Assembly: GCA_015956445.1 (NCBI GenBank) | Contig: WIUZ02000030.1 | Span: 62,001-126,000 of the forward strand | Length of the DNA: 64,000 bases | Source: Thelephora terrestris | Taxonomy: Eukaryota > Basidiomycota > Agaricomycetes > Thelephorales > Thelephoraceae | Direction of reading: 5' to 3' | Shown here: one piece after another, positions 1 through 7,670 of the stretch | How positions within the stretch are numbered: the stretch's first letter is position 1 | Layout of the letters: each line of letters begins with the position of its first letter | Notes under the pieces: generated by a model | Told to the model about the DNA's origin: nothing | Seen by the model: only the letters and a program-made list of their open reading frames with translations | The model's database searches: none | Made by a program: the position numbers and the translations under genes

Positions 1-1064
1 GGACCCGTAAGCTGTTTTTGGTGGTCTTCGGAGAAGCGGCCATGAGACAATTCGCTGTTGCCGAGTTAGGGATTGCGGAGGACGACTCGAGGGGATTCCG
101 CTTACTTCATTTTCTTCATGACGGTCTTGAACATGACACCCGTTCCAAGTCTCGCTCCTCGCAGGTACTTTTGTGCCTTCGTTGATAACAAGATTCGCCA
201 CTCTCCGAATCCCTCTACAATATCGAAGCACAGGGAGGCCCTAATCGATTCGGCTATGGGCCCTGCCGCTGTGATTCCTGACTCTTCGAGTTGGCGCTTG
301 AATAGATCTGACACCGTAGCTTGCCTTAGGAAGTGTAGGAAGACCTAAAATCGGGTAAGTGTTTCAAGGTAAGCCTGAGGGACAGGGATACACGCACCCC
401 CAGTATATCCTTCAGTCGAAGTAGGATATCATCATACACTGTGCGGACTTCGTGGTAAGTCGTTGGTACTGGAATCCCTGCACAGTAGAAGGGATCTGGA
501 TCGAGTCGTAACTTCCTCGCCGATGCTTTCGGCTTTTTACGGCCGGTTGGAAGCACGTTTACATCAATTGAAGCTCGGTCTATGCATCCATCAAGTTCCT
601 TGATTGCATCCAGAGACAAGCCAATTTTCCTTCGAAACCCCCTGAGCTCATTACGTTGTTCCGCTGGTACCACAGTTTCTGCAGGTGTCAAGGAGGAGGA
701 TAGTTGTTTGAGGAGTTTGATGCCCAACGCCTCCGTCATATTGGGCTCGTCGGGTGTGGGGAACCGGGCAATAACCCACTTCGCTAATTTCTCGAAGTGT
801 TGGTTATCCAAGGCTAGAGGAACAGAGTTTGATGAGACGCATTGTAAGTACAAGCGAACGGAACGTACTCGACATGGTGTACTCAAAAACGTTAGGGCGA
901 CGACTGAGCTCCGCAATCATATGCATTATTGAGGAATCATCGTGATAACAGACCCTTTCAATCGAGCACAGGGCAATTTGAAGCCCGCCTCGGGTCGTCA
1001 ACGCATCCGGTTCAAGGAGATCGGTGTCGAAACTTTGCGGGGAGGATGGACGTTTTCGCGGCAT
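1..1064 (-). CDS. TRANK1/UvrD-like P-loop helicase, 5' end (partial)
   Basis: N-terminal part of a large basidiomycete P-loop/UvrD-like protein of the TRANK1 type; the gene runs off the left edge. Model: exons 1064-869, 813-398, 344-106 and 11-1, with introns of 55, 53 and 94 bp whose phases agree. The recognisable part is the third exon: a block reading FDIVEGFGEWRILLSTKAQK followed by MFKTVMKKM. This block precedes the conserved region of this family in Agaricomycetes, as I remember those sequences. The helicase motifs themselves lie outside the window, so function is inferred from that block only. The start at 1064 (MPRKRPSS) is the second in-frame Met; 1094 is possible. The last intron acceptor at 12-14 is the least certain splice site. 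The role of this family in fungi is not established. Confidence 0.6.
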
Positions 1065-1776
1065 GATATGAGTGAGACGAAGATTGGCCGCCACACTTTC
1101 TCGACTTGGAGCGTGGTTTGGTAAATTGGGCGCTCAGATTTACAGATAGGTATACTAGAAAGGTCGACCACGTTGCCTGAATTTCATACATGGATGAAGC
1201 GCGCATGATTCCGACTCCCGCGACGTAGCAGCGACCGTCGTTGATCATGTTATGACTGTAAGCCGCTCCTAGTCGTTCGAAGCTTCTTGAGCACGGAGAA
1301 GAATAAAGCGAGACGGGCAGCTCTGGGCAGAGGGGAAAGAGGCCTCGGAAGATGCCGAGGTCCGAGGCATGGAGGAGCTGCACGTGAGCTTCTTCCATCG
1401 CTAAACATCTCACTGGTAACCCTTGGTAACCCCGGCAATGGACTGAAAATGCCTACCTTCGCGAGTAACCGTTCATGCCCCCCCAGCCGAGGATCTTCTG
1501 CCTTCTTACGTTCCCTCAAGTTAACCCAATCAAATATCCTAGCCATCGTTATGTAAAGGGTGCTTGAAGTGTATCAAACATGGGGGTACATAAGTACGCG
1601 AAAGCGCGGGCTAGTTCTTCATCAAACAAGCGACTTCAGGCGTAAACGCCTAAACAGCCAGGATGAGCGCACGAGCTCAGCGTTTGTTATGACGTGTGAA
1701 AAGAAAAGAGATATTTACCATCGGATTTGCCAAGGTTGTAGAGTTGGGCGAAAAATCTGATTGTTGCGTTGAGACC
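1065..1776. other. Intergenic, no gene seen
   Basis: About 700 bases between the helicase start and the end of the repeat-peptide gene. Open frames here are short, overlap each other and show no intron logic or family resemblance. Presumably it holds the helicase promoter and the 3' end of the peptide gene. Just past the stop of the peptide gene (1760-1776) the DNA still resembles the start of a further repeat unit. Confidence 0.5.
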
Positions 1777-2398
1777 TCATTTAGGTCCGTATCCCTGTCC
1801 GCCGCTAGCCTCCCCCTGGCCTTGTAAAAATTGGTCATTGAGGAGATTAGATATTTGGTTCGTCAACGAGTCGAGATCCTGCCTCTTGAGGCCAGGGAGA
1901 GCGACGCTGACATGGCCATCGGAGCCGAGATTTACAGCCGCGGAGGCAGGGTCCGCCACCGGCTCGTTCGCGTCGAGACCTCGCTTAGATCCGTGCCCTT
2001 GTTCGTTGCTGACCTCCCCCTGACCTTGCGAAAGTTGGTTGAGGAGATTGGAGATTTGGGTAGCCACGGAGTCGAAATCCTGCCTCTTGAGACCCGGGAG
2101 AGCGATGCCGACGTCGCTGGTGGAGCCGAGGTCGACATCTACCGAGGCTCTCTTGAGAAGGATGCCAAAGTCGAGGTTGGCGACAAGATCCGAGGATGGC
2201 TCCCTCTTCGAAAAGGTGTCTGGGAAAGGCTGGATCTTGACTGGCCCTGGGCCAAACTCGATCGGTACGCCTTGGGGTGTGCGGTCAGCGAGATGGAAGC
2301 GTTGGAGAACGGGGTGGGGACGTACGATAGTCAGCGACGGGAGCTGCGTTGACGAAAGTGGCGAAGGCGAACAGAAAGAGGGCGGATTTGGCGAACAT
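1777..2398 (-). CDS. Secreted Kex2-type repeat peptide precursor
   Basis: Predicted 188-residue secreted protein; exons 2398-2326 and 2270-1777, one 55 bp intron with a CTGAC branch site. Residues 1-18 are a clear signal peptide (MFAKSALFLFAFATFVNA). The rest carries five Lys-Arg sites (in FSKR, LLKR, GLKR, GSKR, GLKR) that would release five segments. Two of them are variants of QD(F/L)DS..TQISNLLN followed by a Gly/Gln-rich tail, and two end in GIALPGLKR or SVALPGLKR, so the protein is an imperfect tandem duplication. There is no cysteine-rich or enzymatic domain. This architecture is the one known for fungal kexin-processed proteins (Ustilago Rep1-like, mating-pheromone-like, KEPs). Processing by Kex2 and the role of the peptides are inference. 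A TATAAAAAA lies about 155 bp upstream. The last repeat ends Lys-stop where the earlier unit has Lys-Arg. Confidence 0.75.
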
Positions 2399-2552
2399 GT
2401 CGGAAGGAGATGTGGATGGTTAGGATAATGAAGATGACTGGTCGTAAGAAGGCACCGGGCCCTAAGAACTAAAATATTGGTGGTGAGAAGAAGACGAAGG
2501 GGAGCCGTGCTCGCACTGCTGGCCTGGGAGAAACCTGGTGCTGGCTGAGGGG

Positions 2553-2561
2553 TTTTTTATA
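2553..2561 (-). promoter_or_regulatory. TATA box of the repeat-peptide gene
   Basis: TATAAAAAA on the minus strand, about 155 bp upstream of the ATG at 2398. The spacing suits a fungal core promoter with a leader of roughly 100 bases. A strong TATA is typical of regulated, highly expressed secreted-protein genes. Confidence 0.5.
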
Positions 2562-2989
2562 CTATTTCGAGAGGCAGCGGGCGGGCGTTTCGAGCTACCC
2601 CTCCGTGGGCAGGATCATGATGGTCAGGATGATCGTTTGAGAGTCAGCGGGATGCTGTGAATTGAGTTTCTGGTGGGCGAGGCATGAAAGCGCTTCGCCT
2701 GGGGTCAGACGTTTCGCTGGGATGTGGCAGTTCTCTTGTGATGGACCCGGGGAAGAGATCGAGTGAACGAATGATTGACGCTGATCATTACGATGCACAC
2801 AGCGTTTATTGATGGATTCAAACGGGGCGCTGGGGACCACAACTGACAACTTACGGAGGTCGCTCATCGTCAAACGTACGTCAACAGTTAACGGTGTCAC
2901 CGCGCAAGTCAACGTCCGGGGGAAGACTTGCTGAACGGATTGGAGGCTGCCGGACCCTGCCGGTTTTCGATCACACAAGCTCAGCGCTC

Positions 2990-3480
2990 GAAGTTGAACC
3001 TTTTGGTGGCCTTGCGGCTGTGAAGTCACTGCTCTCTTTCGCACCTCGAACTCAGATCAGGTCGAATTCTTCCAAATGAGCCGCCTTGGTCGGACTAGAT
3101 GCCGGAGCGAGAGTGAACCAAATGCCGAGAAAGGCCAGGGAACCGTGGTAGATAATTTTTGTAGACGCCGGGCCATTTAGCAAAGGTCACTAAAATTTAC
3201 GTTGAAAACGACAACGATCAGATGCAACAGCCTGAGTGGGTCGAGCTCAAATGCCGTTGGCGAGGCGCCCATTCTCTTGCAACCCAAGTATGGTAAGGCT
3301 TGCTGGCGCTGACATTGATCATATAAAGTGGTTCCTTCGAGCGCATGCCATCTGAGATTTACTGGCAACTCGCCCTTGCATCCCCCCATTCTTCGTCACG
3401 ACCCGCAGTTCAGTGTTGTGATGGAACGATATCCGTGGACAGAAGTATTTCTCCTCATGCTCCTTCAACAGGCGAAAGAA
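2990..3480 (+). pseudogene. Decayed copy of PIG-U exon 1 plus wax synthase 5' end
   Basis: This stretch is a diverged copy of about 5645-6175. Its left part (about 2998-3065) still translates to GLAAVKSLLSFAP, matching the start of PIG-U ([13 protein letters not shown] at 9.4 kb). Its right part (about 3345-3480) matches the 5' end of the wax synthase gene, including a block reading RYPWTEVFLL after a start-like Met, then breaks off after about 15 codons where the similarity ends. No downstream acyltransferase sequence follows, so it is a truncated duplicate. It lies just beyond the 3' end of the minus-strand membrane-protein gene (stop at 3549). Confidence 0.65.
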
Positions 3481-3548
3481 ATCATCCGTATGAGGGATGT
3501 AAAACAAGAGTCACAGCCACAACGTGACCTTTTAAATTTTAAGCCCCG

Positions 3549-4848
3549 TCATAATGGAACTTCCTCAATAGCAGTGCCCGACCCAGCACCGGACTCGCCA
3601 GGAACCTCCACGTGTGTATCCATCGAACTCGTGGCATATCCATCAGGGAGGGTCTCATCACCACCCGTCGACTCCTCTTGGCTCCCAAAGTGAAGCGAAC
3701 TGATGTTACCAGAGGCAATGGCCTCGCTCGTCAACGCCCTCTGGTTGGCAACTCGTAGAATGATGAGGAGCGGAGAGATTACCTGTTCGTCATCCTGATT
3801 AGACAGCATCTGGACGTTGCGGTGCGACGAACCTGAGTCTCCACAAGCATTGAGCTGAACGTATATTCAAGGGCACTCCCGGCGCCCCACGGTCCAAGAT
3901 ATAGCAGAGAAGCAACGGTGTAGAGGGCACAGGACTCGACGAGGATGGTGACGATGGCCTCGTACACTCCGCTAGCTCCCGCTGAAGCCCCCATGGCCTT
4001 TCGGATGTTCCTCCTGTGAACGACGAGTCGTACGACGATCATGGATGTGAGGATGACGTTGAGCGAAACGGAAATCGTGAAGTATGAAAGTCCGGCGTTG
4101 ATAGTTGGAGCGTTCGAGAGCTCCGGTTGGACGGTTTGGTACATGAACCTGATTCCAGTCGCTACATCGATGATGTTAGTCAGGTGTCACTGTTGACTTG
4201 CAGAGGACCCGAACGCGCACCGAAACAGGCTAGATACACCAAGAAGGGGAAGGCGATGACCCAGTAGTTCTTGGCATAAACAATGAAGCAACGATAGAGC
4301 TGGAGGTGCGGCAAATGTTAGAGGTCTGGATGGCTCAGTCAAAATGGGACTCGCCAAAAAGCCATCTGCTAGCCATTCATTCAAGAGGTACATAGCATTG
4401 GGAACATATGATACTGCCGCGTCATTTGTACTGAACAGGTATCCGAGAGGTCCAGGAAGTGACACCTGGTCAACACCTCCAGAGAACTCTCGATTGTCAA
4501 CGAAGCAAAGGGACGAAAGGTCGAGGCCAATCGCGGTAGCTATAGTCACAAATGTGAACGTAGCCACGGCGTGGACCACAAGACCCCACTTGACACCCCC
4601 TCTTCCGTGGTTGGCGGGGTTGAGCAACGCGCCCATGCATTGGAAAAACAGAACGATGACGATTCCTAGAACGACGGATTGAATAAATGACGTGAACGCA
4701 GATAGGTGGACACACGAGTCAACGCACCATAGAATATTGAGCCTAAGAGAGGTCCAGCAAACGTCACTTTCTCTGCAAAGTGCAAGAAGAGTGGGATCTG
4801 CGGAGCATTGGGGTTATTGGACCAGGGCTCTTCTGAGGGGTCAGACAT
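3549..4848 (-). CDS. Multi-pass (about 7 TM) membrane protein, Agaricomycete family
   Basis: 357-residue integral membrane protein; exons 4848-4728, 4665-4355, 4299-4221, 4161-3833 and 3782-3549, all phases consistent. The order of motifs (LLGSIFYGIVIVLFF, GGVKWGLVVH, CFVDNREF, LLNEWLADGFL, YRCFIVYAKNYWVIAFP, LEYTFSSMLVETQ, SPLLIILRVANQRALT) is that of a large uncharacterised basidiomycete membrane family with about seven segments. The C-terminal 60 residues are hydrophilic and acidic. Intron 2 (4354-4300) starts with GC (GCGAGT) rather than GT; phase and family alignment require it. Function is unknown; a receptor-like role is often guessed for such proteins but nothing here shows it. Confidence 0.85.
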
Positions 4849-5560
4849 GGTTCGGGCGTGTGCAACGTTCTGGCAGAGGGCGGGGCAAAGGAGCCACCTC
4901 AGAAGTTTGTGAAGGAGGTGAAGAGGGTCGACAGGTTATAAACACCCCAGGGTCCAATCCAAAGATAGGTGATACATGATCCATATCGACATATGAACAT
5001 GAGTAATTGGCGGGGCGACAAGTTCTTCGATCAAAACAACACTTCTCAGGCCTCGCGGCCCTGCAGGGGAAGCGCTCAGGGGTTTTCCCACCCGGCGTGA
5101 GTGCAAACAAGACGTCGCAGTTGCTGTGCTGAGTCTCTGCATTCCAGGTCTTCATCGGCACCCTCGCGGGAAAGTCAAGTCAAGTACGTGGCAGCACACG
5201 ACCTTTACCCATGGGTCACAAATCCCTGCTCTCTCGCTACGGTACCGCCTGGATTGCGATTGGCAGAGAAAGGGAACGTCTATCTTCTCACCATTCCGAT
5301 AACTTTGATGGTTCGTCAAACTCAAGAACCTATGCACATCAAACCAGGCCGCTCGTATTGTATGAACTCTGAAGCAAAGTACGTTATGCAGGGTCGACAT
5401 GCGCCTGATATCATCCTGAATAACAAACTGAGTTCCTCCTATCACTTAACTTATATTTGTTTCTGGTGTTACACCAAGTAGGCTGCAAGTTATGTGGATG
5501 GAACGTCGGGCCGATTGATTTTACACACCAATCTCCGGCTGCCTTGCTCGCGGGTGAGCG
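4849..5560. other. Intergenic, no gene seen
   Basis: Upstream region of the membrane-protein gene. Open frames are short and overlapping without splice logic. No repeats or RNA genes recognised. Confidence 0.45.
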
Positions 5561-5564
5561 CTAG

Positions 5565-5760
5565 AAAGCCAGACGGCCAACATCCCCCAAGACGAGCAAA
5601 GAGTGATTGACACAAGCCTCCGACGACGTCCAATACCACTGCAAATACAGCCGCATCGGAGATGTGAACCTTTTGGTGGCCTTGTAGCTGCAAGGCCACT
5701 GCTCTTTTTTGCGCCTCTGCCAGATCAGTTCAAATTCTTACAAATGAACTACCTTGGTCG
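5565..5760 (+). pseudogene. Relic of PIG-U exon 1
   Basis: About 5660-5750 translates to GLVAARPLLFFAPLPDQFKF, nearly the same as [20 protein letters not shown] at the start of the real PIG-U gene (about 9405-9465). DNA similarity extends some 80-100 bases upstream, into the region next to the PIG-U start. No further PIG-U exons follow; instead the wax synthase gene begins about 400 bases later. A start codon equivalent is not kept (the homologous ATG position reads GTG). It is an exon-scale duplicate, better preserved than the relic at about 3.0 kb. Confidence 0.7.
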
Positions 5761-6128
5761 GACTAGATGATGGAGCGAGAGTGAACCGTGAAAATTGTAC
5801 CGAGAAAGGCCAGGGAACAGGATAGATAAGTAGGTGATCGTGAGCCGTAATACGTGGTCTGCTTGAGGAGACCAAAAATTTACGTGGAAATTCAAAAAGA
5901 CAACGATCAGAGGCATGGTTGGTCGAGCTCAAATGCCGTTGGCGATGTGCCCATTCTCTTGCAACTCGTCATCGATTCATCGCTCGCGGGCCAAGTATGC
6001 CGCTTTGGCGCTCATGATTGCAGGTGTCGTTGATCACATAAAATCCTTCGAGCGCATGCCATCTGGGATTTACCAACTCGCCCTTGCATCCCCTCATTCT
6101 TCGTCACGACCCGCAGTTCAGTGTTGCG

Positions 6129-7471
6129 ATGGGACGATACCCGTGGACAGAAGTCTTTCTCCTCGAGCTCCTTCGCATCCTCGTTTTCTACCCAACGCGT
6201 CACCGTGTTTACCGGCTCCTCATTCTCGCCGCCATGATCTACCTCGCAGCCCAAATCTACCTAACGCCGGAAGTCACCGATCCGCTTTCGATTACCTACA
6301 CCGTCGGCGGCACGATCCCTCTCGCCTTCGCATACGCCGCCCACGTTCTGTATGGGCAGGGGCCCTTCCCTGATCACTGGAGACGCGTTCGCGACGAGGT
6401 CCACGCCGAAGCCGATGCAGACCGCTTGGATAACCTACCGTCGAATTTCTCATTCGTGAAGAAGCTTTGGTGGATGCTCGACCTCGCGTACAGCATCCGA
6501 ATGATTGGATGGGTTCAAGAACCACGAGACTCCCTACCGTCCCGCCCGCCACCCTCGCGCCAAACGTTCTTCTGGAAGACCTTCTTGAAACTCATCGTCA
6601 ACCTCGCCATCGTGGATCTCACCACCATAGTTTTCGCTCAAAGCCCAGCGTTCGACTCCCGCGTGCACGATCCTTCCGACGGCCCAGAGACGTACCTCGC
6701 CGCGGTCCCGCTCCCGCACCGTGCGCCTTACATCCTGGCGCTCGCCCTTATGATGGCATGCGGGTTCAGCGCCGTTCACAACCTTATGGCTTTAACGTGC
6801 GTCGGTATCGGTCGCTCGAGCCCCACGCTGTGGCCAGACATCGGGGGACGCTGGGAAGATTCGTACACCCTTCGCAAATTCTGGGGGTACGTAAACCGAG
6901 CGACCTCCCGCTCCCATCATCCATTGACAAAACATATCTCAGTCGAACGTGGCACCAACGTATGCGACTGGTACGATCGCTCGTTCTGTTCCCCCGTATA
7001 TTCTGAACGACTTGAGCGGTTTAGACGGTCGCGGGGCTAGGAAAGCTCGTCGCGAACAAAACTTTGAAATTCCCCCGCGGTACCAAAAGATCATCCTACG
7101 TTCAACTCTATCTCGCCTTCTTCCTATCAGGGATCTTCCACTTCGCCGGCGATTTCATGTACGAGAAACGGTTCGTATCCCGCTCCTTCAAATTCTTCCT
7201 TCTCCAAGCCGTCGCCATAACCTTCGAAGACTTCGTTCTCTCTCTCGCGAAGCGTTACCTACCACAAAGTGGAATCGAGTCCAAGCTGAGGGACGCTGGT
7301 TGGTCTTGGCTAGAAGTGGTCGTAAGGGTCGTGGGTTATTGCTGGGTGATCCTATGGTTTTGTTTGACGGTTCCGGTGTGGATGGACGAATCCAGCGCCG
7401 CAGGGTTCGGTATCGCCAACAGAGGGCCCATCGCTCAGTTCTTAATGGATACATGGAAAAAGCGGGTGTGA
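6129..7471 (+). CDS. Wax synthase-like membrane-bound O-acyltransferase
   Basis: 410-residue membrane acyltransferase of the fungal wax-synthase domain family (MBOAT_2 type). These enzymes move acyl or acetyl groups from CoA to alcohols or terpenoids in the ER membrane; the substrate here is unknown. Exons 6129-6886, 6943-6970 and 7025-7471; introns of 56 and 54 bp. The middle exon is only 28 nt and carries the family signature RTWHQ (His257, expected catalytic), preceded by LWPDIGGRWEDSYTLRKFWG. Several hydrophobic segments: around residues 16-40, 52-75, 155-175, 200-225 and three near the C terminus. The Met at 6129 is chosen because the preceding 15 residues (from 6084) look untypical; 6084 remains possible. 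Related genes often sit in terpenoid clusters, but no terpene synthase is visible nearby. Confidence 0.85.
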
Positions 7472-7670
7472 CTCGAGCGATATATCTGTGCATCTAGTTG
7501 TATTGTTATCGTGTTTTGGGCCGTGACCTAGTCCTCCCTTAGAATACACCTTTGTTCCCCATGTGGCGAGGTCCGTCGGGGCGAGAAACACGCACTCGCA
7601 ATACTAGATTGAAAGCAAGTATGGCACGATCACGGCCAGCGTACACATATCGGCGATGAAACACAGCAAA

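What the first reader, a model, noticed from the sequence alone, without database searches (positions are those of the whole stretch)
1777..2398. Candidate undescribed secreted peptide precursor with Lys-Arg-bounded repeats
A signal peptide is followed by five Lys-Arg sites and two diverged copies of a two-peptide unit: (D/N)LGS...ALPGLKR, then QD(F/L)DS..TQISNLLN with a Gly/Gln-rich tail. The QDFDS and QDLDS peptides would begin with Gln, which can cyclise. I know of no named family with these cores. Kex2-released peptides in basidiomycetes include repellents and pheromone-like signals, so this may be a new signalling or surface peptide.
Basis: partly seen in the sequence, partly recalled or inferred. 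Interest (0 to 1): 0.85.

Follow-up and report, generated by a model that had tools for sequence, protein, structure and literature searches.

The report
Two-unit Kex2-cut secreted peptide precursor
This fungal gene encodes a small secreted-looking protein built to be cut at Lys-Arg sites into short peptides, two of them near-copies of one 34-residue peptide; it looks like a real gene and its peptide was not found in our limited searches, but the way it is built belongs to a known fungal class whose functions are mostly unknown.

Summary
On the minus strand (window 2398 to 1777) a 55-nt intron joins two exons into a 188-aa protein with a signal-peptide-like start, five KR sites and two copies of a two-peptide unit. 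Two intact paralogs on the same contig keep the intron position: B (86%) keeps all five KR sites, with A/B dN/dS 0.31; C (52%) is rearranged. A broken fragment lies on contig C23. The three intact genes share a conserved TATA-plus-leader block found at no fourth place. The genome has kexin and glutaminyl cyclase loci. Best reading: a Kex2-processed repeat protein (KEP) releasing two acidic, amphipathic peptides of about 32-34 aa with N-terminal Gln, probably capped as pyroglutamate. KEPs are a published class; this member has two repeats where the automatic screens I read ask for three. No UstYa match lies on its contig and the end is not CaaX, so it is not filed as dikaritin or basidiomycete mating pheromone. 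Function is undecided. Expression, processing and presence in other fungi could not be tested: no fungal collection was available beyond this genome.

The parts
1777..2398 (-). KEP-like gene A, start codon to stop, one intron, 188 aa
   Evidence: paralogs B and C with the same intron position; A/B dN/dS 0.31
2556..2561 (-). TATAAA, 163 nt upstream of the ATG; also at -159 in B and -156 in C
2399..2563 (-). conserved promoter/leader block shared by the three intact copies; no ATG between the TATA box and the start codon
   Evidence: A-C 142/160 identical against 212/290 in the flank further upstream; three places in the genome, these three genes
2345..2398 (-). putative signal peptide MFAKSALFLFAFATFVNA
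   Evidence: hydropathy mean 2.24 over its core; -3/-1 rule by eye (inference)
2326..2398 (-). exon 1
2271..2325 (-). 55-nt intron, phase 1
1777..2270 (-). exon 2 with stop codon
2149..2202 (-). fragment EPSSDLVANLDFGILLKR (pro-region, marginally like the ALPGLKR spacers)
   Evidence: 30 of 1,000 shuffles reach its score against fragment 3
2083..2148 (-). spacer 1 ASVDVDLGSTSDVGIALPGLKR
1981..2082 (-). cargo peptide 1 QDFDSVATQISNLLNQLSQGQGEVSNEQGHGSKR
   Evidence: best helical moment 0.526, 0.7% of shuffles as high
1882..1980 (-). spacer 2 GLDANEPVADPASAAVNLGSDGHVSVALPGLKR
1780..1881 (-). cargo peptide 2 QDLDSLTNQISNLLNDQFLQGQGEASGGQGYGPK
   Evidence: best helical moment 0.452, 1.3% of shuffles as high
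1777..1779 (-). TGA stop at the place of the CGA (Arg) of the internal GSKR; repeat similarity runs about 11 nt past it
1..2986 (.). window part of the right arm of a ~10-kb inverted duplication (C24:54934-64986), whose left arm (C24:39705-49666) carries paralog B

Best explanation
A Kex2-processed repeat protein (KEP). The precursor enters the ER by its signal peptide. Kexin cuts after the five KR sites and a Kex1-type carboxypeptidase trims the basic ends. This frees two diverged copies of an acidic peptide of about 32-34 aa, with an amphipathic N-terminal half and a Gly/Gln-rich tail, and two spacer peptides ending in ALPGL. The N-terminal Gln left by the cut is then cyclised to pyroglutamate, which would protect the peptide outside the cell. 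Shown here: sequence anatomy, paralogs, purifying selection between A and B, presence of kexin and glutaminyl cyclase loci. Inferred: secretion, cutting, trimming, capping. For function I commit, weakly (about 40% on its own), to an extracellular or hyphal-surface role of the amphipathic Q-peptide in dealings with the surroundings, as proposed for other mushroom KEPs and reported for Rep1 of Ustilago, rather than to mating signalling. The confidence below is for the KEP mechanism, not for this function.
For: KR enrichment and repeat register. Intact paralogs B and C with the same intron position and phase. B keeps all five KR sites; the codons differ between sites (AGG, AGA, CGA) and once between A and B (AAG/AAA). 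A/B: 26.5 synonymous differences on 134.8 sites against 28.5 replacement differences on 429.2 sites, dN/dS 0.31, Fisher p 4e-5. Shared TATA and leader. Kexin locus: best PDB hits are kexin, E 2e-70, with an S8 and a P-domain at one place. Glutaminyl cyclase locus: PDB hits E 4e-33. Precedent: pyro-Gln KEP peptides of 8 to 19 aa detected in Coprinopsis cinerea, whose genome encodes a putative glutaminyl cyclase (PMC9769878, results parts 1-2 of 3 read).
Against: No expression or peptide data. Only two copies of each peptide, where the automatic screens I read ask for three. Paralog C lacks the ALPGLKR-QDFDS stretch and has GSKL for GSKR, so this exact processing is not needed in every copy. The last peptide has no KR behind it. 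No homologue seen outside this genome (no fungal collection on hand). In Neurospora the glutaminyl cyclases are ER proteins (PMC5241404, passages) while Kex2 acts later, in the Golgi (PMC9769878), so capping may be spontaneous or partial.
Confidence: 0.78

Rival explanations
1. Repellent-like surface peptide (a functional sub-case of the KEP reading): the released amphipathic peptides assemble on hyphal walls and change wettability or attachment, as Rep1 peptides do in Ustilago maydis.
For: Length (34 aa) and amphipathic character resemble Rep1 (repeats of 34-55 aa) and Hum3 (31-36 aa), both with Kex2 sites (PMC4617103, passages); helical moment above 98.7-99.3% of shuffles.
Against: Two copies, not twelve or seventeen; hydrophilic Gly/Gln tail; amphipathicity was computed for a helix whereas Rep1 peptides form amyloid-like fibrils; sequence similarity to Rep1 not tested.
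Confidence: 0.25
2. Secreted signal (a functional sub-case of the KEP reading): a pyro-Gln peptide read by a receptor of the same or another fungus.
For: N-terminal Gln exposed in both cargo copies of A and of B; dN/dS about 0.3 in all segments between A and B; a gene for a protein with several hydrophobic spans lies about 1.1 kb away in the window.
Against: No CaaX end and no Cys in A, B or C; no Ste13-type XA/XP start on the cargo peptides; the membrane protein has no Pfam match and its relative lies about 9 kb from paralog B, not beside it.
Confidence: 0.25
3. Dikaritin-type RiPP precursor, with cores cyclised by UstYa oxidases.
For: Signal-peptide-like start and KR-bounded repeats; the genome has two UstYa matches.
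Against: Both UstYa matches are on other contigs (C1, C12), none on C24; the repeated cores hold no Tyr except GYGPK at the end of the last one.
Confidence: 0.04
4. Ordinary small secreted protein that acts uncut; the KR pairs are incidental.
For: Paralog C keeps only two of the homologous KR sites, and its two further ones stand before Pro, where cutting is unlikely (recalled rule).
Against: 0 of 20,000 shuffles give five KR; KR sits at the same place in both units and all five are kept in B.
Confidence: 0.12
5. Decaying family: recent duplicates on the way to pseudogenes, without present function.
For: Copy D on C23 is a broken fragment; C is rearranged; A and B lie in a large inverted duplication.
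Against: A and B are intact, differ by one in-frame two-codon gap, and show dN/dS 0.31, p 4e-5; C is open throughout.
Confidence: 0.08

Closest known systems
Kex2-processed repeat proteins (KEPs), e.g. C. cinerea KEP 497993 (PMC9769878)
   Same: Secretory start, dibasic sites, repeated peptides; N-terminal Gln found as pyro-Gln in C. cinerea; linear peptides; function mostly unknown
   Different: Two repeats where the automatic screens ask for three; longer cargo (34 aa; 8-19 aa detected from KEP 497993 in C. cinerea); two alternating peptide types; no core shared with the peptides named in the sections I read
Rep1 and Hum3 of Ustilago maydis (PMC4617103, passages)
   Same: Amphipathic repeats of 31-55 aa with Kex2 sites between them
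   Different: 12 and 17 repeats; Hum3 has a hydrophobin domain; fibril formation not tested here; sequences not compared
Dikaritins (ustiloxin, phomopsin)
   Same: Signal peptide and KR-bounded repeats
   Different: No UstYa match on the contig; no Tyr-centred short core
Alpha-type pheromone precursors
   Same: Kex2-cut secretory precursor
   Different: No XA/XP lead on the cargo peptides, no Trp in A, longer cargo (34 aa against the 9-24 aa given for alpha-type pheromones in PMC6339444)

Membership tests
KEP | N-terminal signal peptide | tested here: inconclusive
   Hydropathy mean and VNA|A cut site by eye; no predictor on hand
KEP | Repeated peptides bounded by KR/RR/KK | tested here: met
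   Five KR in register with a two-fold repeat
KEP | At least three similar fragments: rule of the screens in PMC6339444, PMC7329392 and method 1 of PMC9769878 | tested here: not met
   Only pairs are alike (F3-F5, F4-F6); F2-F3 is marginal, 30 of 1,000 shuffles. The authors' pipelines were not run. It is a screening threshold: PMC6339444 says it was set to reduce false positives and that some alpha-pheromone precursors have fewer repeats than most KEPs. Method 2 of PMC9769878 (repeat finder plus visual choice, under 300 aa) states no such number and might pick this protein
KEP | Kexin present in the genome | tested here: met
KEP | Peptides released in vivo | not testable with these tools
   needs mass spectrometry
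Dikaritin | Linked UstYa (DUF3328) gene | tested here: not met
   2 matches in the genome, on C1 and C12; none on C24 (exon-wise search, lower bound)
Rep1/Hum3-type repellents | Amphipathic 31-55-aa peptides between Kex2 sites | tested here: met
   34-aa cargo, best helical moments 0.526 and 0.452; the last cargo has a KR only before it
Rep1/Hum3-type repellents | Many repeats (12 and 17 in the two known cases) | tested here: not met
   two units
Rep1/Hum3-type repellents | Surface-active amyloid-like fibrils (Rep1) | not testable with these tools
   bench assay
Basidiomycete mating pheromone | C-terminal CaaX (recalled) | tested here: not met
   ends QGYGPK, QGYGPE, TKSARP; no Cys in A, B, C
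Alpha-type pheromone precursor | Ste13 XA/XP lead after the KR sites | tested here: not met
   Cargo starts QD in A; only the pro-region fragment starts EP

The most novel reading that the evidence does not exclude
A family of low-copy, two-cargo Kex2 precursors that the three-repeat screens skip, here releasing a long acidic amphipathic pyro-Gln peptide that is a new type of fungal surface or signal peptide, under a shared conserved promoter/leader, with the array shortened by an Arg-to-stop change inside a Kex2 site.
Probability: 0.25. Interest if true: 0.55.

Novelty: new member of a known kind. Interest (0 to 1): 0.38.

Why it matters
KEP-derived peptides are widespread in fungi and their functions largely unknown (abstract of PMC9769878). 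This is a clean, testable case: a small gene family with purifying selection between two members, a shared leader, and a cargo peptide that is easy to synthesise. It also suggests (inference) that a three-repeat rule leaves out real precursors, so the number of such peptides in fungi may be underestimated.

Tried and rejected
A 9-base pattern search of the genome was uninformative (205 and 223 matches against 169 and 167 for the control). Pfam on A, B and C gave nothing above the curated cut-off. The PDB search gave one weak match, to a LacI-type regulator (E 0.003), taken as chance. Relatives in IMG/VR (two scans) and GTDB contigs (one scan): 28, 5 and 37 pattern hits, none confirmed by tblastn; metagenome scans were capped at none. 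Core strings in papers: no paper held any of six strings; sequences in figures or supplements would be missed. Faster evolution of the KEP gene than of its neighbourhood was considered because the outer part of the inverted duplication is less alike; dropped because the gene (89-91% in 300-column bins) lies within the range of its neighbours on that side (81-96%). Cargo under positive selection: not supported, dN/dS 0.25-0.32 in all seven segments (few sites each).

Full report
What is there. The minus strand of window 1777-2398 encodes, after removal of a 55-nt intron, a 188-aa protein. After a putative 18-residue signal peptide, cutting at KR gives six fragments of 29, 18, 22, 34, 33 and 34 aa. 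Fragments 3 and 5 share the spacer (D/N)LGS...ALPGLKR, and fragments 4 and 6 the cargo QD(F/L)DS...QISNLLN...QGQGE.S..QG.G. Five KR in 170 residues were reached in 0 of 20,000 shuffles, and the two units align with a score of 164 against at most 52 in 1,000 shuffles.

It is a real gene as far as sequence can say. The genome (40.6 Mb, 60 contigs, unnamed; I did not establish the species) holds four loci of the family, seen as seven exon-level matches: A (this gene, C24:64398-63777, minus), B (C24:40302-40929, plus, 190 aa, 86% identical to A), C (C24:38679-39367, plus, 208 aa, 52%), and D (C23:24576-24965, minus), a fragment with a stop and frame changes and no exon 1 match. Searches with C (11 matches) and with the unit alone (7 matches) hit the same four loci and no other. 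A, B and C carry the intron after CDS nt 73; its length is 55, 55 and 62 nt. A against B has 26.5 synonymous differences on 134.8 sites and 28.5 replacement differences on 429.2 sites, dN/dS 0.31, Fisher p 4e-5. Caveat: the test treats sites as independent, and if the inverted duplication were an assembly error A and B would be alleles rather than paralogs; the inference of constraint would stand.

Promoter and leader. A TATAAA lies at -163, -159 and -156 in A, B and C, and no ATG lies between it and the start codon. Between A and C the 165-bp block is 142/160 identical (gapped columns left out), against 212/290 for the 330 bp further upstream (p 7e-5), 40/52 in the intron (p 0.04) and 101/128 in the start of exon 2 (p 0.03). 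A DNA search with this block and the start of exon 1 found three places in the genome, the three genes. Constraint or an old gene conversion could explain this; I cannot separate them.

Array history. The stop of A reads AAA-TGA where the internal copy reads AAG-CGA (KR), and the repeat similarity runs about 11 nt past the stop. B also has TGA there; C reads TTG and continues into three copies of a Pro-rich repeat, two of which hold KR followed by Pro. So A and B most simply end inside a former Kex2 site (inference). C lacks the ALPGLKR-QDFDS stretch, so that spacer and cargo form one fragment; this speaks against a strict need for that cut in every paralog.

Processing machinery. One locus on C1 (about 998.6 kb) holds an S8 domain and a P-domain; the best PDB matches of the S8 part are kexin (E 2e-70), then furin. 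Of nine M28 exon matches I compared one locus with the PDB, C1:4412.7-4413.5 kb; its best matches are glutaminyl-peptide cyclotransferases (E 4e-33). Kex1 and Ste13 genes were not searched.

Peptide properties. The N-terminal half of both cargo peptides is amphipathic if helical (best 18-residue moments 0.526 and 0.452; 0.7% and 1.3% of 5,000 shuffles of the same peptide are as high), with net charge -2 and -3 as cut fragments, or -4 each once the basic ends are trimmed (counted by eye). That argues against a classic cationic membrane-active peptide. No fold was computed.

Comparison with what is known. I read parts of three KEP papers: PMC6339444 (abstract, sections 6, 10, 24), PMC7329392 (abstract, sections 6, 13) and PMC9769878 (abstract, introduction, results parts 1-2 of 3, discussion, screening method). 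Their class description fits. The screens of the first two and method 1 of the third ask for three similar fragments and this protein has clear pairs only, so they would probably pass it over; I did not run their pipelines, and the visual method 2 of PMC9769878 might catch it. PMC9769878 reports pyro-Gln KEP peptides in culture fluid, mycelium and caps, no phenotype for six kep deletions, and no antibacterial activity of the synthetic peptides tested. Rep1 and Hum3, seen here in passages of PMC4617103, and Rep1 in passages of PMC2515848 and PMC8528282, have Kex2-bounded amphipathic peptides of similar length. UstYa matches exist in this genome, but not on this contig, and there is no CaaX end.

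Verdict. A new member of a known kind, with a core not found within the limits, and in a two-unit form that three-repeat screens skip. Processing is likely, function open.

Noticed in passing
window 1-2986 and C24:39705-49666 (L019, L020): Right arm of a ~10-kb inverted duplication with a 5.3-kb spacer; identity is 100% at the inner end and falls to about 91% or less at the outer end, which suggests gene conversion from the centre or an assembly effect. The arms also carry a helicase-like gene (weak ResIII/DEAD matches below cut-off).
   Followed up: partly
C24:38679-39367 (L012): Paralog C has, in place of the second unit, a basic Pro-rich tail of three ~30-aa repeats with KR-Pro in two of them, a different kind of cargo behind the same secretory start.
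   Followed up: partly
window about 3545-4849 (-) and C24:50143-51573 (-): Two related stretches (65% DNA identity) coding for proteins with several hydrophobic spans and no Pfam match, one of them next to the KEP gene.
   Followed up: partly
window 2995-3690 and 5665-7494: The stretch at 2995-3690 looks like a decayed 5' copy of the gene starting near 6042 (weak MBOAT-like match below cut-off, E 0.039; 73.7% identity over 529 columns).
   Followed up: no
window 2399-2563: Leader block more conserved between A and C than intron and flank; reason unknown.
   Followed up: partly
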